Source: Triparma columacea (Eukaryota > Sar > Bolidophyceae > Parmales > Triparmaceae). Taken from it: a DNA stretch of 64,000 bases. Below are positions 15,485-59,574 of this stretch, piece by piece (position 1 is the stretch's first letter; the number at the start of each line of letters is the position of its first letter). The notes under the pieces are model-generated. The model did no database searches and was not told where the DNA came from. It worked only from the letters and a program-made list of their open reading frames with translations. Made by a program: the position numbers and the translations under genes. The stretch spans positions 1-64,000 of the forward strand of contig BRYA01000106.1 of the NCBI GenBank assembly GCA_030267965.1. Direction: 5' to 3'.

Positions 15485-18400
15485 ATGAAGTCGATGCGCC
15501 TAGTCTTGTCCGATAGTGGATCCGGCCTCCAAAAAACCAGGAATCCTCAGCAATGCAACCGAGTGAAAGTGTCTCATATTTGCCTAATCTTTTGGACCTG
15601 CTTAGTCCTAGTCGGAGGGAGGTCGTTGGCTGAGGTGAATGTGGTCGATATGAACGGGCTGTTCAACACGGTCAGTAATTATGTGAATAGCAATGTTAAC
15701 ACTGGCAACTCCATCATGGCAAATGGTGACTCTACGATTCTAGCTGCTGGGCCGTATAAATGCTCACAGGGGACTTGTGCAGATAGTGGTACCATGCTGG
15801 CCACAAGAGACTTGAATGGAGAGGTCAAGTGTGTGGAGGACAACGCAAGCTGTGTGTTGGATGGAGAGAATGAAAGAGGAGGGATGGTTGTGTATGGAAC
15901 TGGGAGTGGAACACTTATTCTCCGAGCTCTCACCTTCGAAAAGGGGTATCGTGATGTTGGTGGAGGGGTTTTCATTTGGAGTGGTGCCATAGTGGACTTG
16001 AAGCTCTGTATTTTCTCCAATAATAGAGCTACAAGTAGTAGTTATGGAGGTGGAGCAATTTATGTTGCTTATGATGGAACTACTGTCAATGCCTACGGAA
16101 CAAGCTTCAATGGAAACACAGCAGACTCAGGAAATGGTGATGATATTTACAGGGCTAGTGGAACCATCACCATCCATAATACGTGCCCTTCTCCCTACTC
16201 CTCCAACACTCCAATCCAAGGTAAGATGAGAATGAGGTTTGTGTGGTCTATAGAACCATTCCTAACCCCACAACTCACTTTACGTTACCGCTGCACCAAT
16301 TCCTATTCCTACCTCTCTCCNNNNNNNNNNNNNNNNNNNNNNNNNNNNNNNNNNNNNNNNNNNNNNNNNNNNNNNNNNNNNNNNNNNNNNNNNNNNNNNN
16401 NNNNNNNNNNNNNNNNNNNNNNNNNNNNNNNNNNNNNNNNNNNNNNNNNNNNNNNNNNNNNNNNNNNNNNNNNNNNNNNNNNNNNNNNNNNNNNNNNNNN
16501 NNNNNNNNNNNNNNNNNNNNNNNNNNNNNNNNNNNNNNNNNNNNNNNNNNNNNNNNNNNNNNNNNNNNNNNNNNNNNNNNNNNNNNNNNNNNNNNNNNNN
16601 NNNNNNNNNNNNNNNNNNNNNNNNNNNNNNNNNNNNNNNNNNNNNNNNNNNNNNNNNNNNNNNNNNNNNNNNNNNNNNNNNNNNNNNNNNNNNNNNNNNN
16701 NNNNNNNNNNNNNNNNNNNNNNNNNNNNNNNNNNNNNNNNNNNNNNNNNNNNNNNNNNNNNNNNNNNNNNNNNNNNNNNNNNNNNNNNNNNNNNNNNNNN
16801 NNNNNNNNNNNNNNNNNNNNNNNNNNNNNNNNNNNNNNNNNNNNNNNNNNNNNNNNNNNNNNNNNNNNNNNNNNNNNNNNNNNNNNNNNNNNNNNNNNNN
16901 NNNNNNNNNNNNNNNNNNNNAGACTATGCAGAATTTGCTGCTACTTCTTGCTCTGCCTGCTCAGGAGAGGGAGAGTTCTCGGCAGAGAAAGGACAGGCAG
17001 CATGCTCCACAGCACCGGCAGGCTTCAAGCCCATCTCTGAGACTAACCGCTCGGGAATCGTGGCTTGCCCCGCCGGGACATTCGCAATTGGGGGCAAGAC
17101 GAGCTGCACAGTCTGCCCAGCAGGCAAATACAGCAGCGTGGGAGCAGCCGGTTGCTCTACCTGCGCTACTTGCGCTACCGGTAGATACTTGATCAACGCC
17201 TGCACTCCTACAACCGAGACTCTGTGCGGAGACTGCCTAGCAGGGACAGCGTCGATTGGAGGTGCAGTGACGGAATGCACTCCATGCAACGTGGATGGCA
17301 AATACTCCATCTCTGACAATGCCAGCTTTTGCTTGACAGCCAAGGCTGGATACAAGCCGAGAGAAGACCACAAGGGAGAGGAACTTTGCCCAGCAGGAAC
17401 GTACTCCACTGGCGGAGCTAATGAGTGCTCCGAGTGTGGTGAAGGAGAAACTAGCGATGCTGGTGCCGCGGGCTGCTCCACCTGCGCGACTTGTGCCACC
17501 GGTAGATACATGATCAATGCCTGCACTCCTACAACTGAGACTATGTGCGGAGACTGCCCCAAAAACACCTTCACTCTTTCAGGCGCAGCAAATAGAGAAG
17601 GCTGCACTCCGTGCGAAAATGTTGGCGAGTTCTCTAAACCTGGTGCTGGCTACTGTGAGAAGTGCCCTCAATATGAGGAGTTCAATGAATTCTCTCTGTC
17701 TTCTTGCGAGTGCATGCCATCCTTCTCCAGAATAGGCGATGACAACTCATGTACCTGCAAGGCCGGAGAAACCCTGATGGGTACCTCCTGCGAGCCCTGC
17801 GAGAAGGGGAAATGGAAGTCTGTCATTGGCGTCACCAGCTGCTCTCGTTGCGAGGACACTCTCAAGGGGTCAATCACTGAGAACCCTGGTTCAACCTCAT
17901 CATCTTCCTGTATCTGTCCCTCCCGTACTTACGACGATGGGGAGGGCTCCTGCGTTCCAATTGAGGAGGGAATGAGGGAGGATATCACTGGCATGACGCT
18001 CGCTTCCTTGACCCTCGAGGAAGGTTTTTGGAGAACCAGCTCAAAGTCCTCCGATGTCCGCCCCTGCATCACCCCAGAAGCCTGCGCTGGCGGCAACGAC
18101 ACTGAGACCATGTGCCGCGATGGACACACCGGCCCTTATTGCGCCCTCTGCAAGGACGACTACAACCTAGACCCTTTCATGCTTTGCAAGCAGTGCAGCA
18201 AGAGCAAAAACGATGTTGCTTTCACCGTCCTCGCTTTCGTGCTCTTTGCGTTGATACTGATCGGCGGGTACGTGCTCCTTAAAAAGAAACTGGGTGGAGG
18301 ACGAAGGGGGAAGGAGGTTTGGAAGAGGTGCAAGAATGGGGTGAAGATTTTGTTCGCCTCCGGCCAGATTACAGCATCCCTCCCCAACGTCGTCCCGCAA

Positions 18401-19675
18401 GTGTCTCTCCCTGAGAACTTCAAAGAGGTGGTGTCGGCAACACAGTTCCTCAACTTCAACATGTTCACGCTCGTCCCCATGGGTTGCTTCGCAGGGGGAG
18501 GCTTCAACTTCTACGTCAAGTCTGTGGCTCTGACCATGTCTGTCATCATGGTGATCTTGACACTTTCCCTCCTGGCATTCTTCAAGAAGAGGCCCAACCT
18601 GTATACCGCCGCTATTGCCATATCATACCTCACTCTTCCCACCATAACGACTACTGTCTTTGGAATGTTTCCTTGCGATGATTTTGATGATGGTAACTAC
18701 TCTCGCCTCAGAAGCGACTTGAGCATCGACTGCGGAGCGGGGGGTAGGGGAGCTTGGCAGGCATTCGGCTACTTGATGGTTGGGATCTTCCCAGTCGGGG
18801 TTCCGTTAATGTACTGGGTCCTCCTCTACCGGATGAAGGACAGGTTAATGGGGGAAGACAGGATAAACGACGAGAAGCTCAGAGGGATATTGTTCTTGTG
18901 GGAGCCCTACAAGAAGAAGTACTGGTGGTGGGAGGTGTTCGAGACCGTGAGGAGGCTGGCAATGACTGGTTTGCTATCTACCATTGATCCAGGATCCTTC
19001 ACGCAGATTACAGCGGGAATCGTGATGATGACGCTCTACACGAATTATCTTACGTGGGCAAGGCCCTTTGATGAGCTTCGGGACAACGTTATTGCGATTT
19101 TATCTGCCATTCTGTTGACTCTCACATTCCTTTCCGCGTTTCTGATGAAGTCCCAACAGATGGTTGAGGATGACTACGAGGCGAAGGGGCTAGGAACAGT
19201 TTTGATCGCTGCAACAGTGCTCATAATGGTCCTGTTCTTTGTGTGGGCATGGTACTCATTCAACGACCTGAAAGCAAGCAATGACGGTATGGCTGCAAGA
19301 GCTTTTCAAAGTTCTATTGGGAGCAGGTCAGGGAGTAATGTGGGAGAGGGGGGGGGAGTCGAAATGGGGGCGAGGAGAGGGAGCGAGTTCTTGAGTGATA
19401 ACCCCATGCATGTAGAAGCTGAAACTGAGGAGGGGGGGAGGGGGGAGAAGAAGGAGGGCAAGAGTTTCTATAGGAGGTTCGAGGATGAGATACTGAGAAG
19501 ATCTTATGAGAGGCAGTTGAAGAAGATGCCGGTTAACACAAGGGTGGTCAGGCAACAGCAGTACGAAGACCCCATTCCTGGACCGCCACCAGCTAAATCG
19601 CAGCAAAAGTCCCCAGCGTCGAAGGTTGAAGCCGGGGAGACGGGCCAATCCATGCAATCAAGAAATAATTCTTAA
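15485..19675 (+). CDS. Large POMP-like / GCC2-GCC3 Cys-rich multi-pass membrane protein (assembly gap inside)
   Basis: Exon 1 begins at the ATG at 15485 and ends near 16220 (AAG|GTAAGATG). The next kilobase holds intron and N gap, so the exon joining the halves is missing. The 3' coding block is open from 16921 to the stop at 19675. The N-terminus has a hydrophobic signal/anchor (ICLIFWTCLVLVGG). GGGVFIWSGA and GGGAIYV are chlamydial-POMP-like beta-helix repeats. After the gap come several GCC2/GCC3 ephrin-receptor-like Cys modules (CPAGKYSSVGAAGCSTC). The C-terminal third has about 7-8 hydrophobic spans (KNDVAFTVLAFVLFALILIG to VLIMVLFFVWAWYSF) and a hydrophilic tail. This layout suits a cell-surface receptor or channel-like protein; the ligand is unknown. 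Confidence 0.8.
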   Translation: MKSMRLVLSDSGSGLQKTRNPQQCNRVKVSHICLIFWTCLVLVGGRSLAEVNVVDMNGLFNTVSNYVNSNVNTGNSIMANGDSTILAAGPYKCSQGTCADSGTMLATRDLNGEVKCVEDNASCVLDGENERGGMVVYGTGSGTLILRALTFEKGYRDVGGGVFIWSGAIVDLKLCIFSNNRATSSSYGGGAIYVAYDGTTVNAYGTSFNGNTADSGNGDDIYRASGTITIHNTCPSPYSSNTPIQGKMRMRFVWSIEPFLTPQLTLRYRCTNSYSYLSXXXXXXXXXXXXXXXXXXXXXXXXXXXXXXXXXXXXXXXXXXXXXXXXXXXXXXXXXXXXXXXXXXXXXXXXXXXXXXXXXXXXXXXXXXXXXXXXXXXXXXXXXXXXXXXXXXXXXXXXXXXXXXXXXXXXXXXXXXXXXXXXXXXXXXXXXXXXXXXXXXXXXXXXXXXXXXXXXXXXXXXXXXXXXXXXXXXXXXXXXDYAEFAATSCSACSGEGEFSAEKGQAACSTAPAGFKPISETNRSGIVACPAGTFAIGGKTSCTVCPAGKYSSVGAAGCSTCATCATGRYLINACTPTTETLCGDCLAGTASIGGAVTECTPCNVDGKYSISDNASFCLTAKAGYKPREDHKGEELCPAGTYSTGGANECSECGEGETSDAGAAGCSTCATCATGRYMINACTPTTETMCGDCPKNTFTLSGAANREGCTPCENVGEFSKPGAGYCEKCPQYEEFNEFSLSSCECMPSFSRIGDDNSCTCKAGETLMGTSCEPCEKGKWKSVIGVTSCSRCEDTLKGSITENPGSTSSSSCICPSRTYDDGEGSCVPIEEGMREDITGMTLASLTLEEGFWRTSSKSSDVRPCITPEACAGGNDTETMCRDGHTGPYCALCKDDYNLDPFMLCKQCSKSKNDVAFTVLAFVLFALILIGGYVLLKKKLGGGRRGKEVWKRCKNGVKILFASGQITASLPNVVPQVSLPENFKEVVSATQFLNFNMFTLVPMGCFAGGGFNFYVKSVALTMSVIMVILTLSLLAFFKKRPNLYTAAIAISYLTLPTITTTVFGMFPCDDFDDGNYSRLRSDLSIDCGAGGRGAWQAFGYLMVGIFPVGVPLMYWVLLYRMKDRLMGEDRINDEKLRGILFLWEPYKKKYWWWEVFETVRRLAMTGLLSTIDPGSFTQITAGIVMMTLYTNYLTWARPFDELRDNVIAILSAILLTLTFLSAFLMKSQQMVEDDYEAKGLGTVLIAATVLIMVLFFVWAWYSFNDLKASNDGMAARAFQSSIGSRSGSNVGEGGGVEMGARRGSEFLSDNPMHVEAETEEGGRGEKKEGKSFYRRFEDEILRRSYERQLKKMPVNTRVVRQQQYEDPIPGPPPAKSQQKSPASKVEAGETGQSMQSRNNS
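16321..16920. other. Assembly gap (600 N)
   Basis: Unsequenced stretch inside the surface-protein gene; the round length suggests an estimated size. Frames reading through it are not reliable. Confidence 0.99.
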
Positions 19676-30013: not shown

Positions 30014-33000
30014 TCATACGTTCCCCCTCATCTCTATCTTGGCCCTCTTCTCCCTCTCTGCCTTGTCGATCTCCTTCTCCATGTGTTCCTTCGCTCCGGT
30101 TAAAAAGCCCCCGTAAATATTTATCAGCCTACCCTGCATACCCAGCGGTCCGAAGGATGCCAAGAGCGCCGCGTAGAAGCCCAGCGAGAAGAGCGTCGAG
30201 AGAATGATAGTTAAGAAAATGAAGGTCCCGAACTTCTCGAAGAAGGCAATGTTTGCAGTAAGCATGATGCCCGCCGCCCCGACCGTGCTAATGGCCCCGC
30301 TGATTATGCTGAACCCCGTTGACTCAAGCGCGAATTTGACCTTCCCGTACCTGGTGACATCCTCGCATGCCTTGTAGCTGTCGCTCAGGTGCACTGTGTA
30401 GTCTACTGAGAAGCCGATAACCAGGACGACCAGGATGCCCTCCAGCAGGCCTAGGCCCCAGCCGGAGAAGGTAAGGAAACCGAAGACGATGGTCACGATC
30501 ATGCTGATGGTTAGGATGGCAAGGGAAGCTAGGATCCAGTTCTCGCACGCGATTACCAGGACTATCCAGCTGAGCGCCAGGCTCAAAACCACCCCCTGTA
30601 TAGCCGCGGGCATCAGAAGTATGGTCTGCCTCCACTTTGGTGCGCTCGCGCAGTAAACCATGACCTTCGCCATGTCCTTCGTCCCCTCGTCTTCCACTCT
30701 CTGGTTGTACTCCTTCGCCCATTCGTCCCAGACGTTTACCATGTCCATGCCCTTCCATGCGTCCGTCGCGAAAATGTCCAGCTCCGTCTGCACGGTCACC
30801 TCGGACATGGCGATCCTCTCGAACTTGTTGTCCTCGTCCTTCGTCGCGTAAACGTAGTCCACCCACCAGTTCTGGTTTCCCCCCACCGCCATGTAGTTGG
30901 TGAGGCTGGTAGTGAAGAGGTTGCTGTTAATGCACTTGAAGGGGTTCCCCGCGTCCAAGTAATTGAACTCCGAGAAGCAGACGTGCTCGGGGACGGGGAA
31001 GATTCCCATGCAGTTGCAGCCCTTGCTAACCCTGGTCGTGTTGCTGACGACGTGGTCGAGTATGACGTCTTCATTGGTGAGCTTTGATACGATGAAGCCG
31101 TCGAAGCAGTAGCGGCAGGAGTCGACGCTATCGGGGTCGGAGCTCCAATCGGGGACACCGTTTACTTCGGGGGCTGGCTCGAAAGTGTACCTGTACGGTG
31201 GTGGGGAGGGGGGGAGTTTGTTGGCTGGAGAGAAATAAAACTCCTTTGTCTTCTTTCGAAGTTCGTTGCTTCCCTTGTCGCTTCCCTCGTCCCCACGCAC
31301 CTCTTGGCCTCACTCATGTCACTGCCATCTGGAACTATAATGTCCGCCGCTTCCTTGCTGACGTTCTGAAACTGCTGGAACCCCTTCATGAAGCACTGTA
31401 TCCCGTAGGCCTTCCCGGTGGCTTTACTAGTGTCTCCCAATACCCCGTCTTCCTGCCCCGTAAGTTGGGGGTTTATCCCATACTTTTGCTCCATCAAATA
31501 CTTGGGATCGGGCTTCAATTCGGTATCGACCTCCTTGCAAAGGTCAACGAACTGATTCTGGAAGTCAATTGTCGCCATGTTGAAGCTCCTTTCGAAGTTT
31601 GGAACCCCGCTAACTACATCTGTAACCTCCGCGGCTGGCCCGGGGACAAAGTCTTCTTCCTTCATATTGCCATAATTGACAGGGTCGTCGACATTGAGAC
31701 CGAACACGAGATGGATGGTGAGAGGGTTGGCCTCGCCGGGGAACCTGCGATGAGCAAAGCGGGTGAAGATCGAATGAAATTAGCGATGATGTATTTGGTG
31801 TTGGGTTGCCCAAAACGTTTCTGAAAATCGCTTCTCCACACGCACCTTGTCAGGGCCAGCTTTGTAAAGGTGTAGAAGTTGTCGCCAGGCGGGAAAAGCG
31901 TGTATATTTCAAGCGGCGTGGGAGTGATCATGCAAGCCCCGACCAAGAAGATGGCCCAGACTACGGTGAAGACGGCCAAAATGATGGTCTTCTTCTCCTC
32001 CAAGAACGGAGCGTAGACGTCCCCAAACCAATTCCCGCCCCCCCCCCCCTCCATATCAACACTCAGCATCTCCCCTTCCTCCTTCTCCTTCCTGTCTTCC
32101 TCCATCTCATCACTTTCACTTACGGGATCCGATGTTTTCTTTTTTAGCTTGTCCCGAAGCTTGGCAAAGAATGAGGGGATCCCATCAAACAACCCAAAGC
32201 AGAACCTAGTCTCGGAGAGGTACTTTTCGTAGAATAAGACGGCCGACGGGAAAAAGGTGCAGACACTCACGAAGTTCACAGTTACCAGGAGTCCTGCGAA
32301 CAGGCCAAACGTTTGTACCCCAATGAAGGAGCTGCTCAGGTTGGAGAAGAAGGAGATCACCGTGGTCACCGAAGTCACCAGCATAGCGTTGACTGCGTGA
32401 CTGTAGACGTGACTGAGTCTCTCAGCCGTGCTTGCGAATTCTCCATTCTTGCTCGCGACCCAGGTGTCCCAGTACACGAAGACGTCGTCGGCCCCGATTC
32501 CCATGATGACGAACATCGCGAGGCCGCAGAAGAGCGTGAAGTAGTCGTAACCGTAGCCACTCGAGGTGGGCCACATGTACCTGTACACCAAATTGGCACC
32601 AAAGAAGCTGCAAAGTATCTGGAACATTCCGCAGCAGGTCATGAAAAAGCTACCAAGGCTGAACCACATGTAGAAGAAGACGAAAGCCATGCTGATAACG
32701 ATTTTGCTGAGGTCCTTCCTAACGAGTTCCTGGAGAGGGTCGTAGTTGATGTAGTTGTAAGAGACAGAGGGTGCATTTCCGCTGTTGTACATTCGTTCGA
32801 AATCATCGTTGAAAGTGCTGCTCGTGTACGCGTTCAACTCGTCGAGCTCCTCCACGACGAAGTCGGCAGTGTAGTACTCGAAGTGGGTCGGATCCTGGTT
32901 CTGCAAGCCCAGCTTGTCCATGTAGTAAGTAACGTTGTGGAATGGCGTGCCATAAAGAATGATTGACTTTAGAAGAGGCGACTTTTGGTTGGTGTCGATG

Positions 33001-33816
33001 TCAAAGTCCTTATCTAAATAGCTCAGCATGGAGGCGGAGTCAGGTGAATTCATGATAGTCTGGAGCGTTATCTCGATGTTTTCAAAATTTGGGTCGCCAT
33101 ACTTGGAGAAGAGCGAGACGGGGGAGTTAGGGAGGAGACAACCGTAGGGGTCGGTAATGTTCACTGGGACGTAGGAAGAGATGGCGGTGTTGACCACTTT
33201 CACGTTGCAGGTTGGGAAGTCGTAAAGGAGGGTACACCTGTCGCTCCACTCGGCCTGCTTCATGAACGTCTCCTCGGTTTCTTTCAGTATCTCCAAGCCG
33301 GCTTTCGTCAACGCGTTTTTGTCATCGCCTAGGTCAAGAATCAGGGCCAATGGGGCTCTCTTTGCTTCACTCCTTGGACACATGACCCCCGTGAGGCCGA
33401 AGTTCGCTTCCTCCCTGGCAGTCTCGTACGCGTTTGCCCTCTCCTGGAAGGTGTCAGTGGGGATTTCCAGCCCTAACGGTTGAGTTGTGGTGTGAGAAGA
33501 GCACAAGGATGGTTGTGGTGAGAGAAGAGAACAAGGATATCTGAAAATTATGGTCTCTCCATTTCGCGCTGCAAGGACCCAATCGAAACCCCTAAGTCTG
33601 TTAAATCTCTGTCTCACCTATCTTAGTTATCTTATCCCCATCAATCACATCATAACCTAAACCCAAGAGGACAGCCGTGACCAGGATGAATGTAAAGTTA
33701 CAAAAACAAAATGTTCCAAAGGACGTCTTTACATGAGCAGTAAGGAACTGGTGGAAGGCGGTCGGGTTCGCGTGCTTATGGTCGTGTCCATGTTCGTCGT
33801 CGCTGTTGTCAGCCAT
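30014..33816 (-). CDS. Dispatched/Patched-like RND membrane protein with sterol-sensing region, 1148 aa
   Basis: Exons 33816-33618, 33472-31846, 31744-31301 and 31190-30014; every phase fits. It has two repeats of one TM helix, a large extracellular loop and about five TM helices. The signature proton-relay motifs of the RND/Dispatched group are clear: GIGADDVFVYWDTW in TM4 and GFSVDYTVHLSDSY in TM10. The first loop has paired Cys and N-glycosylation sites; the second begins near CRYCFDGF. A His-rich start (DDEHGHDHKHAN) is cytosolic. A hydrophilic Asp/Glu/Lys loop separates the halves. Relatives export or move sterol-linked or hydrophobic cargo using ion gradients; the cargo here is unknown. 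Confidence 0.88.
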
Positions 33817-41094: not shown

Positions 41095-42636
41095 TCACAC
41101 GTAGCCCCTCCCCACCCCATCCATCCACTCCACCTGCTCCTTGAACCTCGTCTGGCTGAACTCCCAGACCTCCATGTCGCACCTGTTGACCTCCATCAGC
41201 TCCTCCACCAGTTCCTCCCTGACGTCCGCCTTCCTCTCCGCGCCGCTCCCCCTCCCTGTGTTGGCCCTGACCTTGTCCTCGAACTTGAGCCACGGGAACC
41301 ACCTCCATATAACCCTCTTTGTGTCCTCCCACTCCCCCTGCATCCCCACCACGCACTTTCCCATCCTCTTCATCGCCTCCCCCCCGTCCAGCCTCATCCT
41401 CCCTACCCTCTCCCAGTCCACTTCCTCCGGCCTCTTCCCTCTGAAGTGGCTCTCCCCCAGTAGCATCTTGCACATGCTGTCCTTGAATCCTTCGTCCCGG
41501 TACATCCCCCAAGCGCTCCCCCTCCACTCCTCAAGTATGAACCTCCACTCCTCCCTCGTCAGCTCGTTCAGCATCCTCCCCCCCAGGTGGTCCTCCCTCG
41601 TGTACACCCTCTCGTAGTAGAGGCTTATGGCCCTCTCTACCGGGTCCCTCACCATCACCAGGCACCGGGGGTCCTGGTAGTCCTCCCACTCACCCCACTG
41701 AAAGTGACCACCCATAACAGCGAGCTCACCCCTCCTCCCCCCGTTCTCCTCCGTCGCGTTTGACGTGTCGAAGCTGTAGCACCTGTAGTCCTCGTAGTAA
41801 AGCCCGTCCCCGTAGTAGCAGGGTAGGTAGAAGGGTGCCGATATCGAATGGGCCGTCGAGGCAATGTGGGAACGAAGTGTCGAACCGGAGGTCTTCTCGT
41901 GGTGAAGGAACACGAAGGGGGTGGCGACGGAGGGCAGGGCCTGGATAAGGGGCAGGCCAAAGCGGGAGAGGGAACCCAGGGTTAGGGCGTGGGCGGCTGC
42001 CCTGTTGGCAAGGCCCGAGCAACCAGGGTGGTCGAGGCCGGAGGAAAAGCAGAGGGTGGCCACGGAGACCTGGAGGGAGTAGGGCCTCCAGAGTTCGGCG
42101 GTAAGGGAACCGCCCCCTGTCAGGGGGAGCGTGAGGGTGTCCCCAGGCCTGAACAGCCTGTAGTCGTGCATGTCTGGGGGGGAGTCCTCGAGGCCATCCT
42201 GCGACGCTGCCCCCCCCCCGTGCGTGACTGTGGATATCTTGAGACCCTCGGTCGGACCCTTAACCTCGTAGGAAAAGTACGTGTCGCTGCCCTCAACGTC
42301 CCCTTCCCCGACCCTTAGCCAGGCGTGGAGGTTGAGGGTAGTGCCGGGGGGGAGGTGTAGGTCGAGTGTGCTGAACTCGTTGAAGGCCGTTGTGGGCTGG
42401 CAGACGTTCCCCCCAAACTCGTCCCTGAGGTTTAGGTTGAGGTCGTCAACGCAGAGCTTCCAGTCGCCTATATCGAAGGGGTGATGGAAGAGCCCGGGGC
42501 GGAGGGGGGGGGGGGGGAGGAGGACCTCAAATACTAGCATCACGCGGAGGAGGGAGGGGGAGAGGGAGAGGACACGCAGGTCGGAGACGTGGAGACGGGG
42601 GGTGGGGGGGGAGGTAGGGTGGGGGGAGGGGGGGGG
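41095..42636 (-). CDS. Sulfotransferase domain protein (5' end lost in gap or fused to GT61)
   Basis: The frame is open from the gap edge at 42636 to the stop at 41095; the first ATG is at 42540, but coding-like sequence continues upstream of it (LHVSDLRVLSLSPSLLRV). PAPS-binding motifs of carbohydrate sulfotransferases are visible: FLHHEKTSGSTLRSHI (5'-phosphosulfate loop) and VMVRDPVERAISLYYERV (3'-phosphate site), with GGHFQWGEW between them, as in Sulfotransfer_2 enzymes such as heparan-sulfate 2-O/6-O types. An N-terminal region of about 190 residues looks beta-rich. It lies directly downstream of the GT61 sequence on the same strand, separated only by 25 N. See the fusion finding. Confidence 0.8.
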   Translation of the reverse strand, partial: PPPSPHPTSPPTPRLHVSDLRVLSLSPSLLRVMLVFEVLLPPPPLRPGLFHHPFDIGDWKLCVDDLNLNLRDEFGGNVCQPTTAFNEFSTLDLHLPPGTTLNLHAWLRVGEGDVEGSDTYFSYEVKGPTEGLKISTVTHGGGAASQDGLEDSPPDMHDYRLFRPGDTLTLPLTGGGSLTAELWRPYSLQVSVATLCFSSGLDHPGCSGLANRAAAHALTLGSLSRFGLPLIQALPSVATPFVFLHHEKTSGSTLRSHIASTAHSISAPFYLPCYYGDGLYYEDYRCYSFDTSNATEENGGRRGELAVMGGHFQWGEWEDYQDPRCLVMVRDPVERAISLYYERVYTREDHLGGRMLNELTREEWRFILEEWRGSAWGMYRDEGFKDSMCKMLLGESHFRGKRPEEVDWERVGRMRLDGGEAMKRMGKCVVGMQGEWEDTKRVIWRWFPWLKFEDKVRANTGRGSGAERKADVREELVEELMEVNRCDMEVWEFSQTRFKEQVEWMDGVGRGYV

Positions 42637-42661
42637 NNNNNNNNNNNNNNNNNNNNNNNNN
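42637..42661. other. Assembly gap (25 N) in a G/C homopolymer tract
   Basis: Flanked by long G runs on both sides, which probably caused the gap. Its true length, and hence the frame across it, is unknown. Confidence 0.95.
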
Positions 42662-44575
42662 GGGGGGGGCAGATAGATACGCAGGATACACCGGAGAGGA
42701 GAGCCTGGTTAGCGTAGGCCCAGGCGAAGTCGCACCAGCCGGGCTGGAGGAGGAGGATCATGACTGATCCTGGGTTTAGGAAGACTGAGTTGTGGCCACC
42801 TGAACCGTACTGGGTAACGAGAATGTCGGTGGACTGGAAGAGGGCAAACTGGGCGGTTAGGGAGAGGGACTCTAGGGAGGCTACAGTGGGGGAGGGGAGG
42901 AGTGGGAGTAGCGAGGTGAAGTTGATGAGTTCTCTGGATCCTGTTCGTTTTATTATTGTGCTAGTGACAGGAGGAGTTGGTGTGTGTGATGGAGGAGTAG
43001 TTGGTGATGGAGGAGTTGTTGTAGTAGTTGTAGGGTTAGTGCCCGTAGATGATGCTACCGTTGTGTGTGTGTGTGTGTGTAGAGTGTGTGTGTAGAGAGT
43101 GTGTGTAGATGTAGATGATGCTGCTGTTGTAGATGCTGTTGTTGTAGATGATGCTACCTGTGTAAGTGAGTGGATGAGAAAGTTCTTAAAGTTGTCATAT
43201 CTCATCCTCAAATCTTCGCTCTCCTTCTTTTCTCTTTCCTTCATTTCTCTCTCCTTCATTCCCCTCTTCTCCTCCTTCTCCTCCTCCTTATTATCCTCCT
43301 CATGATCCTCGTTATTATCATCGTCGGCATTATAATCATCGTCAACATCGTTGTCGTCAAAAGATATTACTGACGGGTAATTGTTATAACCCAATATGTA
43401 GTACGTTGAGGATACATCCAACTCTAACGTAACCTCCTTAAAACACACACGCGTGCCCTTAGGCATACTAAAAAGCGCATGCTTCGTCATAATCGGGTGC
43501 ACCGTAAAAAGCTTAAGCAGCGAGAACGCCGTGTCCCTCTCGTAGACGTCCCTCAGTATCAGCTCGTGCAGCTCCTCCTTCTCATCTTCATTCGCGACGT
43601 CAAGGAATATACGGCAGGAAGAGTCGAGGGGTAAGGTACCGTTGGAGGTTAGAGAGAGATACAAAGGCTCGAGGACGTCGACGATCAAATGACCAACCTG
43701 CCAGGTCAGGATCGTTATAACGTACACGGGAGAGTCGAAGTAGTAAGTACAGGAGGATAGGGAAAAGGGGGAGGGAGTTATAGAGGAGGGGGTTGAGGAC
43801 GTGGGGGGGGAAATGAAGAAGAGAGACCACTTTGAGGAGGATAGGGAGGGGGGGGGTGGGGGGGGGGAGGTAATTGAAGGGGTGTGGAGAAGGAAGTGAG
43901 GGAGGGAAGAGGAAGAGGAAGATACCAACGTTGTGTGGGTTAGAGTTGTGGACGTAGAGGGGGAGGGGATAGTTTCGGTTGTCGTGGTTTTAATCGTCGT
44001 TGATTCGGGGGTAGGGGGGGGGCAAGTGCCAACGGGGGGGGAGGATGAATGAGCAGAAGGCTCAGGGCGAGGTATGGGAGATGAAGACGGTTGGAACAAA
44101 GAGTATGACACCTCCTGGAGGACGGACTCGCAGAAATACGAGGTGGGAAAAAGGTGGGAGGGGGAAGAATGGGAGGTGAAGTCGGAGGGGGGCCAGAGAG
44201 AGAGGGACTGGTGGAGATTATGAGGGGGAAGACTGGAGGATTGAGGACGGCAGTGACGGTTGGAGGGCTGGGGAAGCTTTTTTTGGTTTGTTATCATATT
44301 TCTTAGATATTCTACTGTGGATAGGAGATGAGTGGTGACGGGCGTTAGATGAGGGGGGGGGGAGATGGAAATTACGGAGGATTCATACCTGAATTGGAGG
44401 TTGTTATACTCGGGGGCGGCGGGGGGGGGGGAGAATCAGAACATGCAGAGGGGATATCATCAGAATGGGAAGTTTCAGAGAGAGAGGTAGGGGAGGGAGA
44501 GGACGGAGTCAGGAAGATGAGGAAGAAGAAGAAGAGGGGAGGGAGCATTGGGGTTAACTGGACTTTCCTTTTCAT
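42662..44575 (-). CDS. GT61-family glycosyltransferase, type II membrane protein
   Basis: Exon 1 44575-44389 starts with the ATG at 44575 and encodes a basic start plus signal-anchor (MKRKVQL, LPPLFFFFLIFL). It joins in phase 1 to exon 2 from 44314 (VEYLRNMITNQ), which stays open to the gap. GT61/DUF563 features are WQVGHLIVDVLEPLYLSL and, near the end, SLTAQFALFQSTDILVTQYG with GSGGHNSVFLNPG, the counterpart of the HGAGLTN donor-site motif. Such enzymes add xylose, GlcNAc or arabinose in the Golgi lumen. Ser/Thr/Pro-rich stem sequence, an acidic insert (about 43240-43360) and a (CA)n-encoded Thr/His stretch are unusual insertions. Confidence 0.75.
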
Positions 44576-50022: not shown

Positions 50023-53000
50023 ATGGAGAATTTGAGTTGGGAGGAGCGTTACCTAAGATTAAGGCAAGTACCTTAATCGATCATGAGGCAATGAACCCTC
50101 TAGATCTTCTCTCTGAAGCCTTTCTTCTCCCCTTCACCCCACACCCGGAGTTCCCCGTAACTTCTCCCCCCGATTTCTCTCCCCCATCTCTCTCTGTGTG
50201 AAACAACAACCCATACCAAGGCCCCCCCCCCCCCATTTTCAAGCCGCCGAAACTCCCCTCTCCTTGTTCTTTCTCAATCACCACTCTTCTCCCCATTTCG
50301 CCCTCATCCTAACCCATTTCTCTCTTTCTCTCCCCCCACCCTCACTACTCACAGGGCGGAGAAAGATGAAATCGCCAAGAAGTCTACTGAACAGGATAGG
50401 GCCATCCGCCAGATGAGGACCAAGTTTGCCAAGCTTGAGTCTCTATTTAAGCAGAAGCAGAGGGCCGAGGGCGGCCCGACAGGGGGGATCGACCTGGGGG
50501 ACGGCGACGGCATAGTGGGTGGTCGCCGTGCGGACAAGGATAATGAGCAGCTCGTTACTGATTTATACAAGGTGAGAGGGTGCGCAGTAAATGAAGACGA
50601 CGATTACCAATGGGCGACAATCTGACCTCCCCATCTCCCCTACCCTACCACCTTTGTCTATCACCGCAGCGCAATGCCAAGCTCCAGAGAGAGAACAAGG
50701 GATTGGAGGCCAAGCACAAGGCCCTTGGACAGACTTGCGCCAAGCTGAAGCGCGAGCTGCAGCTCGCCCGCAGGAGAGGGGGAACGAAGATGGCTTCCAA
50801 GACCAACGATTCCTTCAATGCGGAGAACTTGACCGGCAACGTCACCGCCGCCAGTTCCTCTCTCTCTTCTTCCAAGCTCGCGGAGCTCGTTGACAAGCTC
50901 CGCCACAGGCTCATCAACGCCGAGAAGCAGCTTGGGAAGCTCCGTGAGGAGAACAACAGCCTCCGCAGCGGAGGTAAGGTTGGGGTGTCCAGCGCGGGCG
51001 TCAGGGACGACATGGACAGCAGCATGGCTGCGGCCAGGAGCGCCAAGTGGGCCAGCAGCACCGCTGAGGGGGAGGAGATCCTCAGGCTGCAGCGCGAGCT
51101 CCGCGACACGGCGGCCAAGCTCCAGCTGCTGCAGACTAGGTACGACCACATGGAGTCCAAGACAAAGGCCCAGAGCGAGCTCCAGCAGGGCTCCTTCGAA
51201 CAGCTCGAGGAGTACAACAGGAAGATTAGGGACCTCCGCATGAAGGTCCAGGAGGCCCAGCACGACAAGGAGGTCGCCGAGGCCCGCGCTGCCAGGGCGG
51301 AGGACCTAGAGGAGGAAAATAGGGAGCTCCAGGCAGAATACCAGTCCCTCGAGGACAAGTTCATGAGGATCGACGCCGTCGGAGGACCCGCCGCGGGCAG
51401 GTCGGCCCTCGAAACTTTCGACCGTCAGCACCAGCACGAGAGGCAGCACAAGCAGAAGATCGAGAAGGTGAGAATGAGCGGTTGGCGAGAAGTCCTCACG
51501 CTCACCTTGCGCCTCAACTAACTCTCCCCCCTCCCCCCCCCCCCCCGCTCAGCTCCAGGAGGTTGCGCAGACGCACCTAGCCACCCTAACCGCCCTCCAG
51601 AAGGAGTGCGACTTGCTCAAGAGGGAGAAGGAGGGCCTCAAGAAGCAGCTCGACCGCAGCGAAAACTCCAACCGTGAGTCCTCCTACGCCCACCAGGTTT
51701 CCAGGGATAAGGGCAACCTCTTCGGCTCAATGTCCGACCTTGCTGACTTGGGCATGGAGGATATTAACATGCAGGAGCTCGAGCGCGCCCTGGCTATCGT
51801 TCGCCGCAAGATGGACGACCCCACCGACCTCGATTTCCTCGAGAAGGTCGACGACGGGGACCAGGACATCAAGAAGAGGCTGCAGATGGTTCAGGTCGCA
51901 AACCTCAACATCACCCGCGAGCTAGAGCGCGCCGAGCGCATGCTCAAGGCGCAGGCCAGTATCAACCGCGACCTCCACCTGGAGCTCGAGGAGGCGCAGA
52001 AGCGCCAGAGAATGGAGAAGGATTCCCTTCAAGCCAAGCTCGAGGACTTCGAGTCCCTCTGCCTCAAACGCTTGCAGCGCATCCACTCCCTCGAGGCGCA
52101 GGTGCGTCAGCATCTGTACGCCGTTGGAGGCTCCGGAGGCGGAAAGTTCAAGAAGACCCCCGCCGCCCTCGATGACGTTGTTGGACTTCTTGATGAGGAG
52201 GACAACCTCCTCCAAGAAATTTCTGGTGGGGACTTTGGACCCGACGAGAACCTCATCGAGGTGTACATCGTCGATGCCGAGATCTCCGAGAATACTGTCA
52301 CCTCAGACGCCTCGACCTTTGTGCTCGTTGACTTCTTCGACTACGAGTCACAGGCCACCCCCCTCGTCACCGGATTGTACCCCAGGTACGACTTCGCGAC
52401 GACCTACAAGGTCACGGTCGACGACTTCTTCCTGCGCTTCCTTGCGACAGACAGTCTTTCGATCGAGCTCAACAAGGCCCACAATGCAGACTACCTTCTT
52501 CTCGCCAAGGCCACCGTGACCCTCTCGGCCCTTCTCGAGTCTTCACCTCGCGTCCTCCTATCTCGCCTGCCCCTCATCTCCACCAAGGATGGCTCTGTTG
52601 CGGGCTATGTCCACCTTGAGATTCGCATGGCGCTTCCTGTCACGGAATTGTACAGGCTATTCCTTGACCGCCACCCGGAGGAGCGTAGCAGGATCGAGAG
52701 CGTCGCGAGGGAGAACCTCAAAAGCGAGATTGTCATGAAGCCAGACGGTTCCACGGCCTCCGTGTCGGCCCTGACGACCTCCAACCTCGGACCCAGGGAG
52801 GAGGCCCGCCTTTCCAACGAGTTGTCCGTCACTGTCAAGTCAGCGTCAGGGCTCGTCAAGAAGGGCCGCCAGTCCCCTTCCACTTACGTCCACTACCAGC
52901 TTTTGGGATTCCAGGACACGTTCACCAACGTCGTTGAGTTCTCCTCCGAACCCACCTTTAACCACAGCTTCAGCTTCCCCATTGTTACGGACCCCAAGCT

Positions 53001-56000
53001 TCTGAGGTTCTTGAGGAAGTACAAGCTGACCTTCACAGTTTTCGAGGATAATAACGGCGACGGAGATGACGACGGCAACACCCTCTTCGGCGAGGCCAAG
53101 CTCCCTCTGGCTGCACTCTCCAACGGAGACGACATTTTTGAGACTGTCACTCTCTTCAACTCCCACAAGCACGAGGTTGGAACGATGGAGATCGAAATCA
53201 GGTGGAACTCCCCTCTCAAGCGCCCGGCTGATGCGGGGCCTAACGCTTTGACTGCTCCCGAGGTCGAGGAGATCATGAGCCGCTTCGGCCCCGACAAAGA
53301 CGGCCAGGTGAACTACATGGATTTCGTAAGGTTTGCTGATCCTCAGCCTGCCGTGATTGCCGCCCTCGAGTCCTTCTCTACCTTCCTCACCATGGCGAGG
53401 AAGGAGCAGGGCATTACGACCGCCGAGTTCTTCGAGGCCCTCTCTGACGGCAAAATCGACTCGAACTCCAAGGCTGCCTACATTGATAGCGAAGCCTTCG
53501 TCTCCGGTCTCATGAAGATGCAGGTTGGCATCCCCCCTGACGAGCTTGCAGCGGTTTTCACCCACATTGACGCCAGTGGCGAGAATATGGTGAATGTCAG
53601 GGACTTTATCAAGTTTGCTGAGCCCCCTGTCTCCTCTGCGACCACCATTATCACCGAAAAGCTCCGTCTCCGCTGTCAGCACCTCCACAGGCTCGGAACC
53701 CCGATCATGATGCCCTTCCAGAAGGCCGACACTTCGGGAAGCTACAGGGTCACGAGGCTGCAGTTCAAGGAGTGCCTTAGGGAGATGGGCTTCCAGCTTG
53801 TCGACGACGACTTTTCTACCGGCAAGGTGGTCAAGTCCTCGGTCAAGCCCAAGAGGGTCTTCGAGATTGATCAGATTGACGACGACGAGGAGATCATCGG
53901 AGGAACAAATGCCAAGGACTTGAAAGGTGTCATCAACGAACGGTTCGACAACTCAAGGAGCAGGGCCGGGACCACGTCGACTAACGCAGCTGCTGCCGAG
54001 AACGAGAAGAGGAGGGTAGAGTTTGAGAAGAGGGTCAAGGAGCTAACACAGCAGAACAACGCGGCCGCCGCCAGTATTGATTTCGAGGGTTTGGCCGGGG
54101 ATGGCCTAGAGGAGGAAACCGAGAACATCAACAGCAGCAATAAGAGTATGACCATGACTGCTCCTTCGAGGAGAAAGCCCCCCACCGGGAAGGCCTCGAC
54201 GCAGCAGCAGCCATACGAGACCCCCCTCCGCCCCGACATGGCCGCTACCCATACCGGAATCGCGCAGACTCCTAGCAGCAGCATGTCTAAGATCGACCCC
54301 TCTTCCGCTGCGCCAGCAAGCAAGACAGCCGCAGCGGTATCTGGCGACTCGATGGACTCAATGAATATTGTCGACGTCGAGACTGTCCTCACAGACTGCT
54401 GCAAGGTCTTCAAGGGGGCCAAGGTTCTCCCTGAGGGACTCAAGAGGGCTCTTCAGAATGCCGACGACGGCAACGAGGGCTACCTCAGCAAGAGAAAGTT
54501 CGCTTCCACCGTCGCTTCGATCGAGGGCATGTCCCTTCTGTCTTCTGACGCCCTCAAGTCGGCCATGGACTTCTTCCAGAAGACTCGTACCGGCAGTCAA
54601 ATCGATTACCGCGCGTTCCTTACCTTTATGGGTTGGAAGAAGCCCGCCGTTGCTAACGGCGTCTCGTTAATGTCCAAGATGCTACTTCACTCAACCTCTG
54701 CCATGGACGAGTTCAACAAGTTTGACAAGGAGGGCAGCGGGTACGTGAAGCGCGCTGACTTCTACGAGGGGCTGAGGGAGCTTGGTTACAACAAGCTCAG
54801 CAGCAGCGACATGGACGACATCGCAATTCTGTTCGAGTTCGGTGCGAGGAAGGGCGAGGTCTACTACGGCGCCTTTGTCGAGTACGTGACCCAGCAGGAG
54901 AGCATCCTTGAGCTCAAGGAGGTCGAGAGCAGGCTGAGAAGCAGCATCAGGAACCACTACAGGGACTCGTCAGTGGGAGCCGCGGACGAGCTAAGAGCTG
55001 CCTTCTCCAAGCTTGATCCCGACGGCAAGGGGGTGCTCGACGCGAACGATTTTGCTGCCGGCCTGGACAATCTCGGGTTCAAGCTCACGAGGAGCGACAT
55101 GGATGCATTGTACGTGAGGGCGGACCCCAGCGGGGAGGGAGTAAGCTACAAGGACTTTGTCACTTTCATTGTCAGCGGACCCGACGATGGATTTGGCGAG
55201 CCTCAGAAGTCCCTCAGTGACTTTGACATGGCCATTCTACAGCTCAAGTGCTTCAATGTGGTCAACGAATGCATGGCCCGATTGCCCAACATCGAGGGCT
55301 TGAGCGACGCCTTCAAGCACTATGACTGGAGGAGGAGTGGCAAGCTTGGCTTGAGGAGCTTTGCTTCCGCTGTGAGGAGCAGCGGCTTCACCCTGACCAG
55401 GGCGGAGATCGTCGTGCTCGCCCAGCATTTTGGCGACGGCAGAGGACCAAGCGTCATAGTCCCGTACAACGACTTCCTTAACTGGGCTACTCCTGACAGT
55501 TCGGCTTCTGTCCCTGTCATCGGGGGGAACAACGTAAACTTGGAAAGCACTATGGCCAACCTTAGGAGGCTAGCAGCGAGGAGCGAGAACGGCTCTTTCA
55601 GGAAGTGGTCCGACGTATTTGAGACCATGGACGTCGACGGAAGCGGCATTGTCGACGAGGAGGGCTGCAGGATGGCTCTCAAGAGGCTTGGTGTCAAAAT
55701 CTCCGAGGCCGAGAGCAGGGCCTTGAGTGTAGAGTACGGAGGGGGCAAGAAGGGCGCAGTCAGGTACAGGCACCTCTTGAGGATTCTTTTCCCCGGAGCC
55801 GGAGGGGAGGAGAACGGCAAGGGCGTCGCCGCCTTGAGGAGGCTCCAGGCCAGCGCTAACAGGCTCGACTCTGATCTTTCCGAAATCTCTAGGAAAGCCA
55901 GGGAGATTTTCGGCGAGCTTGACTTAGACGGCCTAGGCTACGTGACGAAGAAGGGCTTCAAGAGGGGCATGATCAAGCTCGTCAACAGGTTGAACTTGGC

Positions 56001-59000
56001 TGCCCCCAGCGACAACGACCTCGAGGAGCTCATGGAGAGGTTCGATACCGGGGGTGATGGGAGTGTAGGATGGAAGGAGTTTGTCAGTGAGAGTTTCGGT
56101 GGCGGCGGAAGTGGCACTGGAGACGAGCTCGAGGCTATCAGTAGGTTCAAGTCAATGATGAGGAAGTGCATCAGGAAGGGCATCGACTACAGGGCCGCGT
56201 TTGACAAGCTCGACGAGGGCTACAAGGGAAGCCTTTCGCTCATTGACTTCAAGGCCGCCCTTCAGGATCTCGGAGGCGGGCTTACAGAGGGCGAGATTAA
56301 CGCTCTTGCTGTCAAGTTCAAGAGCCCTGCTGCTGCGAGGAGGGGGGAGACCGGAGACGGGGCAAGGGTAGTCCTTTACCTGGAGCTCCTTCATTCCCTC
56401 ATGCCCGCTAGGGATATCGAGTGGGATGAGCCCGACGGGTGGAGGATCGAGGAGAAACTGAGGAGCATGATCAAGAACAGGTTTGAGTTCTGGGTCCCCG
56501 GAAAACTGAAGAAGGCCTTCAAGTTCTTCGACAAGCCGACCCCCAGGGGAAAGATAGGGATCGACCAGCTCAGTGACGGCTTGAAGAGGCTGAAAGCCTT
56601 CAGGCTGAGCGCCAGCCAGGAGAAGAAGCTCTTTGACATCATTGACTTGAGCGGCTCTGGGAGAATCACCATGTCTGACTTTGTGACTTTTGTCAGGGAC
56701 CCCACGTACAACGATGTCTGCATGAAGTGCATTAGTGAGCTCGGGAAGGCCACTGTAATGTGGAACGAGGTCAAGAAGAACCTCGAAAAGAAAGACGAGA
56801 GCGGAAGGGGCATTGTCAGCATGAAAGACTTCAAGACTGTTCTTTCCAAGCTCCAGTGCGACTTGAGCAAGAGTGACATCCTGAGGTTGATGGCAAGGTT
56901 CGACGAAGAGGATTCTCAGAACGTCGACATTGCAAAGTTCGTCGACTTTGTCAAGCAGGGTGGGAAGAGGAAGGGGGACGAGGAGGGCGAGGTTTTCAGT
57001 GATGACGAGGACGACGATGACGAGGATAGCGAAGACGACGAAGACGAGGACACGGGATCCGGAAAGAAGAAGAAGAAAGTCGCGTCCCTGATGAAGAAGC
57101 TGAAGAAGAGGCTTCAGGCCGCGGAGGACAAGGGGGTCAGTGCCAAGAGTAGCTTCAAGTTCTTCGACAAGGACGGAAGTGGGGACATCGACGAAGATGA
57201 GTTCAGGCAAGGCGTGAAGAAGCTCTTGAAGGTTAACCTCACCAAGAGTGAGAGCTCCGCCTTGATGGACAAGTTCAAGAGCAGGAGGATCGGAAAGATC
57301 AAGTATACCGAATTCTTGAAGGGGCTTGGCCTTGGGGAGGGCGAGGACGAGGACGAGGATGACGTGGATGACGTTGACGATGAAGATGACGATGACGATG
57401 ACGAGGAGGAGGCTAGATCGAAGAAGTCCAAGAGCAAGAAGAAGGACAAGGGCAAGAAGAAGGAGGACGGGGACTTTGCTGCCATGGTGAGGAAGGAAAT
57501 CAACAGGATAGCAAGAAGTGGAAAGGGGAAGCCTAAGATTAAGACCGTCTTCACCACGTTCGACAAAGACGGCGACGGCACATTGTCCACGAGGGAGTTC
57601 AAGAAGTGCTTGATTAAAATGGGCTTCGAGTTCACGTCCGGGCAGCTCACGAGGCTCATCGACAGGCTCGACGAGGACGGAGACGACAGCATCAGCTGGA
57701 AGGAGTTTGATAGGTTCTCGAAGATGAACACAGGTGGGGACGAAAGCGAGGAGGAGAGCGAGGAGAAGATGAGCAAAGACGAGATGAAGAAACTTATCCA
57801 GAAGCAGATGAAGAAGATGAGCAAGAGGGGAGATAAGCCCAACGTGAGGAGGAGCTTCACTAGGGCGGACAGGGACGAGGAGGGCTTTTTGACAAAGAGA
57901 AAGTTCAGAAAATGCGTCGAGGACATGGGCTTTGAATTCGACAGCGACGACTTGAACGGTATCATTAAGAATTTGGACAAGAATGGCAATGGGAACATTC
58001 ACTACGCCACGTTCGTCAAGTACGCGAAGAGCGACGACGACGAGAGCGCGGACGACAGTGGAGACGACGAGAAGATGGCGGACGTTGACGATTTGGCCTT
58101 GATGGTGAGGAAGGAACTGAGAAGGGTGACAAAGAGCAACAGCGGTCCCCCAAAAGTAAGGAGAATCTTCGAGAAGCTCGACACGGATGGCAGCGGGTCC
58201 TTGAACGCAAGGGAATTTAAGAAGGCCTTGATCAAGATGGAATTCAAGTTCAAGACCGACGAGATCGACAGGCTGCTCGATTATTTGGATTCAGACGGAG
58301 ACGGAAGGATCGACTTCAAGGAGTTCGAAAAACTGGTCGATGCTGATATCGAGGCTGATAGCGAAGCTAGTGACGACGACGAGACGGATAGCCCTTACGC
58401 CATGCTCATGGACAAGGTTACTGCGGCCCTGGACAGGGGTCGGGACGTGCTGGAGGCCTTCGAGTACTTTGATGGTAGGGGCAATGGGGAGATCAGCGAG
58501 GACGACTTCAAGGAGGGGTTGCAGAAGCTCAGGATCAAGGCCAACGGGAAGGCTATTAGGCAGGCTTTCAGCAAGTTCAAGGGGAGGAGGGCTGGGAAGA
58601 TCAAGTATACGGAGTTTGTGAGGGCGGTGGAGAAGGGGGGGAAGAAGAAGGGAGGAAATAAGAGGAGGGAAAGAAAGGAGTTCGACGACGACGACGAGAT
58701 CTCGAGGAAGCTCAAAAAGGAGTTCAAGAGGGTCACGAAGAGTAGTAGTGGACCCCCTAGGATCAGGGCGGTTTTCGAGGAGATTGACACCAACGGTAAC
58801 GGGAAGATCGACGAGAGCGAATTGAGGAGGGGCTTGGATACTATGGGGTTCGAGATGAGCAGGAGAGAGGTCAGGAATGTCATGAAGAAGTTCGACGATA
58901 GGGACAAGGGGGAGATTGATTTCGACGACTTTGCATACTTCCTGACTGGGGAGGACGAGGACGCGGACGCCAGTGGGAGCAACAGCGAGGACGGGGATGA

Positions 59001-59574
59001 GAGCGACAGCGACGAGCTGGTCGAGATGGTCAGAAATGAGTTCAAGAGGATCACCAAGAGCAGCAGGGGGCCTCCTAGAATTCGGTCCACCTTCGACGAG
59101 ATGGACATCAACGGGGACGGAGTTGTCAGCAAGAGAGAGTTTAGGAACGCGCTGGACGAGATGGGATTCAGATTCAGCGAGAGGCAGATCAAGGACGTGC
59201 TATTTAAGCTCGACAAGAACAAGGACGGGGGATGCGACTACGAGGAGTTTGAGAAGCTTTGCACGGGCAAGAAGGGTAAGAAGGGGGGAAGGGGAGGAGG
59301 ATTCGACATCGACGATGAAATCGTGCGGAAGCTGAGAAAGGCAAAGCTCGTCAAGAGGGGGAAGCTGGTCGGGGAGCTCGAGAACGCCGACGAGGACTTC
59401 AACAGGAGGAGCAAGGAGTACCTCAAGGTCAAGGACTTTGAGAATTTCGTCAGGGAGAGCATGGACGACGCGAGGCTCAGCAGGACCGAGCTCAAGGACC
59501 TGGTGAGGAGCTGCGACCCGAATGATACCGGGAAAGTCAAGTACGAGAAATTCGCGCAGGTTCTAGAGGGGTAG
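50023..59574 (+). CDS. RPGRIP1L-like C2 protein fused to a giant EF-hand array, 3025 aa
   Basis: Exons 50023-50063, 50355-50571, 50670-51467 and 51553-59574; phases fit only if intron 1 uses a GC donor. Residues 1 to about 560 are coiled coil, starting NLSWEERYLRLR, the RPGRIP1/RPGRIP1L N-terminal signature. A first C2 domain is at about 584-735 (VDFFDYESQATPLVTGLYP, VDDFFLRFL) and a second at about 775-905 (LSVTVKSASGLV, YKLTFTVFEDNN, HEVGTMEIEIRW), matching the RPGRIP1L C2 pair. From about 920 to the end there are more than 30 EF-hand-like units, many with canonical calcium loops (DKDGSGDIDEDE, DKDGDGTLSTRE, DSDGDGRIDFKE), with acidic and Lys-rich linkers near 2170 and 2290. RPGRIP1L organises the ciliary transition zone; a calcium-responsive ciliary scaffold is inferred. 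Confidence 0.88.
50064..50354 (+). other. GC-AG intron of the RPGRIP1L-EF gene
   Basis: The donor reads AAG|GCAAGT, the consensus for GC introns; the acceptor is CTCACAG. The nearby GT (50067-50068) would put a stop just inside exon 2, whereas the GC donor gives a continuous coiled coil (RLRAEKDEIAKK). Confidence 0.8.

What the first reader, a model, noticed from the sequence alone, without database searches (positions are those of the whole stretch)
50023..59574. RPGRIP1L-like ciliary protein fused to a giant EF-hand array
One continuous 8-kb exon links the C2 pair typical of RPGRIP1/RPGRIP1L to more than 30 EF-hand-like units, giving about 3025 residues. Known animal RPGRIP1L proteins end in an RPGR-interacting C2-type domain and have no EF-hands. 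The array alternates canonical and degenerate calcium loops, as if built by repeated duplication of an EF pair. This would place calcium sensing inside the ciliary transition-zone scaffold, an architecture I do not know from the literature.
Basis: partly seen in the sequence, partly recalled or inferred. Interest (0 to 1): 0.9.

Follow-up and report, generated by a model that had tools for sequence, protein, structure and literature searches.

The report
EF-hand-tailed RPGRIP1L of ochrophyte algae
A marine alga's version of a protein that builds the gate at the base of the flagellum carries a very long tail of about 20 paired EF-hand (calcium-loop type) modules, and related algae carry much the same tail in much the same order, which suggests an old structural arm rather than simply a calcium sensor.

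Summary
A four-exon gene (50023-59574, +) encodes 3025 residues, with the C2 pair and the EF array in one 8-kb stop-free exon. The C2 part is RPGRIP1L-type (PF11618, E 5e-43; human fantom best in PDB). It is not a chimera: 42 of 51 homologues found carry PF11618 plus EF-hand Pfam domains. The array has 20 EF-pair modules; eight of the first twelve have partners in 25-32 of 32 proteins compared, mostly in the same order. Calcium-type loops vary from 0 to 13 per protein, so a structural arm fits better than a dedicated sensor. [quoted passage not shown] What I did not find in print is the giant size, the wide conservation in ochrophytes, the module order, and an IQ motif in 29 of 51 homologues. 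No structure model could be obtained. New variant of a known kind.

The parts
50023..50063 (+). exon 1 (start of the N-terminal motif MENLSWEERYLRLR), GC donor
   Evidence: nearly the same residues in T. strigata P0003
50355..50571 (+). exon 2, coiled-coil region (inferred)
50670..51467 (+). exon 3, coiled-coil region (inferred)
   Evidence: only weak coiled-coil-type Pfam matches
51553..59574 (+). exon 4 (8022 bp, no stop inside): rest of the coiled-coil region, both C2 domains and the whole EF array
52231..52638 (+). first C2 domain, RPGRIP1-type (PF11618)
   Evidence: (human fantom 2yrb E 1.6e-16)
52819..53241 (+). second C2 domain (PF00168)
   Evidence: region end
53248..59565 (+). array of 20 EF-pair modules, aa 918-3023
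53812..54423 (+). linker between modules 3 and 4; holds an IQ motif in 29 of 51 homologues, not in this protein
55300..55488 (+). landmark module 7 (YDW motif)
56500..56697 (+). landmark module 11, well conserved between clades
57133..59262 (+). modules 13-19: block with internal duplicates and 7 of the 9 canonical calcium loops

Best explanation
This is the single RPGRIP1L/MKS5 (NPHP8-type) gene of a Triparma-like bolidophyte. The coiled coil and C2 pair would place it in the flagellar transition zone, as in other eukaryotes (inferred). Where vertebrates have the RPGR-interacting C2 domain, it has about 2100 residues of EF-pair modules that begin directly after the second C2. Much of the order of the first twelve modules was set before the sampled ochrophyte clades diverged (shown for eight of the twelve), so the array most likely works as a long, semi-rigid structural arm with fixed binding sites along it, reaching from the doublet/Y-link region (inferred). 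Calcium binding would be a secondary, lineage-tuned property: in this protein the canonical loops sit mainly in the duplicated modules 13-19; in many other lineages an IQ motif could dock calmodulin or centrin (inferred).
For: Gene model and stop-free exon. PF11618 E 5.4e-43; human fantom C2 best PDB match; one PF11618 gene in the genome. The same genome has B9-C2 matches (4 places) and Meckelin, so an MKS module is likely; parmalean genomes keep a nearly full set of IFT/BBSome genes (PMC10328945, passages). 42 of 51 distinct homologues carry PF11618 plus EF-hand Pfam; P0013 is an MMETSP transcript product with both parts in one frame. Reciprocal best partners of modules 1, 3, 4, 5, 7, 10, 11 and 12 in 25-32 of 32 proteins (the 32 is my count of the script's filter). 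Module order against Q: p 0.01 or less in 9 of 14 non-bolidophyte proteins tested, out of 46 held; landmark modules 3, 7 and 11 in order in P0033, P0049 and P0032, and two landmarks each in P0048 and P0050. Q versus T. strigata identity: C2 80%, aa 1300-2100 80%, aa 2100-3025 64%.
Against: No localisation or structure data; the structure server never accepted a job. 9 of 51 homologues have no EF-hand Pfam domain; 6 of these show 1-3 EF matches just after C2, and 3 (P0045-P0047) none, ending 31-72 aa after C2; truncated gene models and real loss were not separated. Modules 2, 6, 8 and 9 have partners in only 12, 16, 6 and 2 of 32 proteins. Module order was not significant in 5 of 14 by best matches (P0025, P0032, P0033, P0049, P0050), and by profile only P0032 of five reaches significance alone. 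The C-terminal modules evolve faster. RPGR1_C was not found. A CEP290 marker domain was not found, but its control was silent too. In Paramecium the EF part is dispensable for localisation and deciliation.
Confidence: 0.6

Rival explanations
1. The array is a calcium sensor or calcium-driven contractile element in the transition zone, for example for flagellar shedding or beat control.
For: 9 canonical loops in Q, 13 in P0003 and P0044, 11 in P0033; IQ motif in 29 of 51; calcium-driven centrin contraction causes autotomy in most green algae (PMC9010356, passages).
Against: 8 of 40 longer family members have no PS00018 loop and 2 of 40 none by a looser pattern; Paramecium RPGRIP1L without EF-hands localises and rescues deciliation (PMC7093003, section 14).
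Confidence: 0.2
2. The array derives from an EFCAB6-like axonemal protein and binds doublet microtubules.
For: EFCAB6 is the best PDB match of the EF part, E 2.2e-28, 101.6 bits; RIB57 (a Tetrahymena axonemal protein by my recollection) 1.5e-17. EFCAB6 is a microtubule inner protein at the inner junction of mammalian doublets (PMC8595878, passages).
Against: The score sums several overlapping, out-of-register pieces; the best single pieces of the two alignments shown are 33.3 and 38.5 bits, while whole calmodulin chains score about 55-58 bits. No EFCAB6-specific motif was tested.
Confidence: 0.12
3. Two neighbouring genes or an assembly or gene-model artefact.
For: Database names are uninformative (Calmodulin; EF-hand superfamily protein); 9 of 51 homologues have no EF-hand Pfam domain.
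Against: No stop over 8022 bp of one exon; the same fusion in separate Triparma records, Scytosiphon, Tribonema, a transcriptome and many unnamed contigs.
Confidence: 0.02

Closest known systems
Paramecium RPGRIP1L (PLoS Biol 2020, PMC7093003; passages and section 14 seen)
   Different: Described there as Paramecium-specific; its sequence could not be compared here, so homology of the two EF tails is untested; here 20 modules, with an order shared over many algal homologues
Human RPGRIP1L (fantom) and RPGRIP1
   Same: PF11618 first C2 (2yrb, E 1.6e-16); a second C2 follows (for human, recalled)
   Different: No RPGR1_C match in the algal protein; the human protein has no EF-hands (recalled)
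EFCAB6
   Same: Long chain of EF-hand repeats in a ciliary protein
   Different: No C2 pair (recalled); register of repeats not one to one

Membership tests
RPGRIP1L / MKS5 | RPGRIP1-type first C2 (PF11618) | tested here: met
   E 5.4e-43; 22 of 22 members of A1 match
RPGRIP1L / MKS5 | second C2 after it | tested here: met
   PF00168 E 3.1e-9; 17 of 22 members of A1
RPGRIP1L / MKS5 | N-terminal coiled coil | tested here: inconclusive
   only weak coiled-coil-type Pfam matches under cut-off; N-terminal motif shared with several algal homologues
RPGRIP1L / MKS5 | C-terminal RPGR-interacting domain (RPGR1_C); replaced by EF-hands also in Paramecium RPGRIP1L, so not taken as defining for the whole family | tested here: not met
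   not among 24 families at E up to 10; genome scan empty but its control was silent
RPGRIP1L / MKS5 | transition-zone location | not testable with these tools
   none
EF-hand calcium sensors | canonical calcium loops | tested here: met
   9 PS00018 loops, of about 37 units by my estimate; calcium binding itself untested
EFCAB6 | EFCAB6-specific sequence over the array | tested here: inconclusive
   best PDB match but out-of-register pieces

The most novel reading that the evidence does not exclude
In the ancestor of ochrophytes, and perhaps of a wider group including ciliates, RPGRIP1L gained a giant EF-pair arm that is a main building block of a heterokont-type transition-zone structure (such as the transitional helix) and that changes length or stiffness with calcium, so that the flagellar gate itself responds to calcium.
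Probability: 0.12. Interest if true: 0.8.

Novelty: new variant of a known kind. Interest (0 to 1): 0.5.

Why it matters
RPGRIP1L is a human ciliopathy protein and a hub of the transition zone (established knowledge). An old EF-pair arm at its C-terminus in ochrophytes, with a similar description in Paramecium, suggests that the vertebrate RPGR-binding end is one of several alternatives. The partly fixed module order gives a clear target for finding what binds there. No diatom is among the hits that bear an organism name, which fits the loss of IFT-A and BBSome genes in diatoms (PMC10328945); but most hits are unnamed and absence was not tested directly.

Tried and rejected
Assembly or gene-model artefact: rejected. 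Second RPGRIP1L gene in the genome: none found. Close separate copy of the array in the genome: only weak EF-hand matches at E 1e-10 or better, 26-29% identity. EFCAB6 descent: left open, weak. NCBIfam match to a bacterial EF-hand effector model is taken as generic EF-hand similarity. Reaching animals, oomycetes or ciliates with the protein search: no hit bore such a name; searches hit the candidate cap and exact-word matching limits reach, so distribution outside these algae is untested. Transitional helix link: speculative; brown algae, which lack it by my recollection, keep the array (P0008, Scytosiphon; P0010 groups with the brown algae).

Papers: in searches the one paper I found that describes EF-hands in RPGRIP1L is PMC7093003. 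One search listed 20 of 75 papers and one search listed 10 of 718; PMC3499766 and PMC6952885 hold both words and were not opened. The library lacks most subscription journals, and PMC3495828 is not held. Only passages were seen of PMC4092220, PMC8535419, PMC8041816, PMC10328945, PMC9010356 and PMC8595878.

Full report
Observation. Exon 4 alone is 8022 bp and holds the C2 pair and the whole array. The T. strigata protein P0003 starts MDSLSWEEKYLRLRAEKDEIAKKSTEQD, matching the joint of exons 1 and 2.

Host. The window lies on contig C106 of a 37.85-Mb, 789-contig genome. The closest protein, P0001, is TrRE_jg7069 of Triparma retinervis: 98% over the searched C2-side region, 97.6% in the C2 pair but 89% in the last 900 residues. 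The host is therefore a bolidophyte near T. retinervis; the exact species is not settled.

Identity of the N-terminal part. PF11618 (first C2 of RPGRIP1) matches at E 5.4e-43 and PF00168 at 3.1e-9. The best PDB match of the C2 pair is human fantom (RPGRIP1L) 2yrb at 1.6e-16. It is the only gene with PF11618 found in the genome. B9-C2 matches (4 places, one with a stop inside the match) and Meckelin are present, so an MKS-type transition zone is likely. The vertebrate RPGR1_C domain was not detected.

The array. An iterated EF-pair profile finds 20 modules from aa 918 to 3023, and none in one shuffle of each of 52 proteins. A single-EF profile reports 17 units at 5 bits or more. Starts of the C-terminal modules lie 97-106 residues apart. 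PS00018 loops number 9, seven of them in modules 13-19. Within Q, modules 14 and 16, 13 and 17, and 18 and 19 are mutual best matches, so this block grew by duplication; P0003 and P0005 already share most of it.

Distribution. Three protein searches gave 35, 31 and 9 hits, 51 distinct homologues in all. All 51 carry PF11618 and 42 also carry EF-hand Pfam domains. Named sources include Triparma, Scytosiphon, Ectocarpus, Tribonema, Phaeothamnion, Aureococcus and Chrysophaeum; most hits are unnamed. The nine without EF-hand Pfam are P0009, P0034, P0036, P0037, P0039, P0042 and P0045-P0047. The local profile sees 1-3 EF matches after the C2 pair in the first six and none in P0045-P0047, which end 31-72 residues after the C2 pair. 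Where EF modules are found they lie after the C2 pair; the one flagged exception, P0029, I take for an effect of an overlong C2 match (C2 end 785, 934). P0013 is a transcript-derived protein with the C2 pair and 12 modules in one frame. The first two searches scored only the 7993 best word-sharing candidates, so groups outside these algae were probably out of reach.

Age of the array. A tree of the C2 region (44 proteins and the human C2; P0035 left out as short, P0045-P0051 found later) separates bolidophytes, brown algae, a clade with Aureococcus and Chrysophaeum, and a large 18-row clade; deep forks are unresolved. Reciprocal best module matches between Q and 14 chosen non-bolidophyte proteins (of 46 held) are in order beyond chance (p 0.01 or less) in 9 and not in 5 (P0025, P0032, P0033, P0049, P0050). 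Over 32 proteins, partners of module 1, 3, 4, 5, 7, 10, 11 and 12 are found in 25, 32, 27, 27, 30, 27, 30 and 27; modules 2, 6, 8 and 9 in only 12, 16, 6 and 2 (32 is my count of the script's filter). With module profiles built without P0032, P0033 and P0045-P0050, all assignments to modules 1-12 with a margin of at least 10 bits are in order in 5 of 5 proteins tested, but only P0032 (six assignments, 0.0014) is significant on its own; the others give 0.083, 0.083, 0.5 and 0.5. The core of the array was thus most likely assembled before these clades split, and its C-terminal part has been reworked since.

Calcium. In 40 longer family members (Q included; 12 shorter or partial ones left out, each with no PS00018 loop), PS00018 loops range from 0 to 13, with 8 at zero; a looser pattern ranges from 0 to 14, with 2 at zero and a median of 4. 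Some of the 40 are themselves incomplete, so low counts are partly lower bounds. Length and order are kept better than calcium loops. An IQ-type motif (xQxxxRGxxxR, after the C2 pair) is found in 29 of 51 homologues but not in bolidophytes; the consensus of A1 places it between modules 3 and 4. Looser matches, as in P0044 and P0050, were not counted. Pfam's IQ model confirms it in 4 of the 22 members of A1.

Known relatives. [quoted passage not shown] The present data show a like arrangement in ochrophytes, but whether the two tails are homologous was not testable here. The EF part's best solved relative is EFCAB6, with pieces out of register.

Verdict. The fusion is real, conserved and old. 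It is best read as an RPGRIP1L orthologue with a structural EF-pair arm whose calcium binding varies by lineage. It is a new variant of a known kind, with moderate interest. Mechanism and location are inferred; no structure model could be obtained.

Noticed in passing
window 31662-33617 (-) and 30014-31300 (-): Neighbouring minus-strand frames match Patched/sterol-sensing (1.4e-11, 4.5e-10) and MMPL families, possibly exons of one RND-type transporter gene.
   Followed up: no
window 15485-19675 (+): 1396-aa frame with ephrin-receptor-like, TNFR cysteine-rich and TRP-channel matches, all under the cut-offs.
   Followed up: no
window 42540-44297 (-): Glycosyltransferase 61 match, E 7.7e-10.
   Followed up: no
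G000 contigs C239 and C392: Open frames of 5251 and 5383 aa with many C2 domains each in the same genome.
   Followed up: no
linker of homologues, e.g. P0033 residue 1207, P0010 residue 1416: IQ motif in 29 of 51 homologues but not in bolidophytes or in P0013, P0015 and P0025.
   Followed up: partly
window 50064-50354: First intron has a GC-AG boundary.
   Followed up: no
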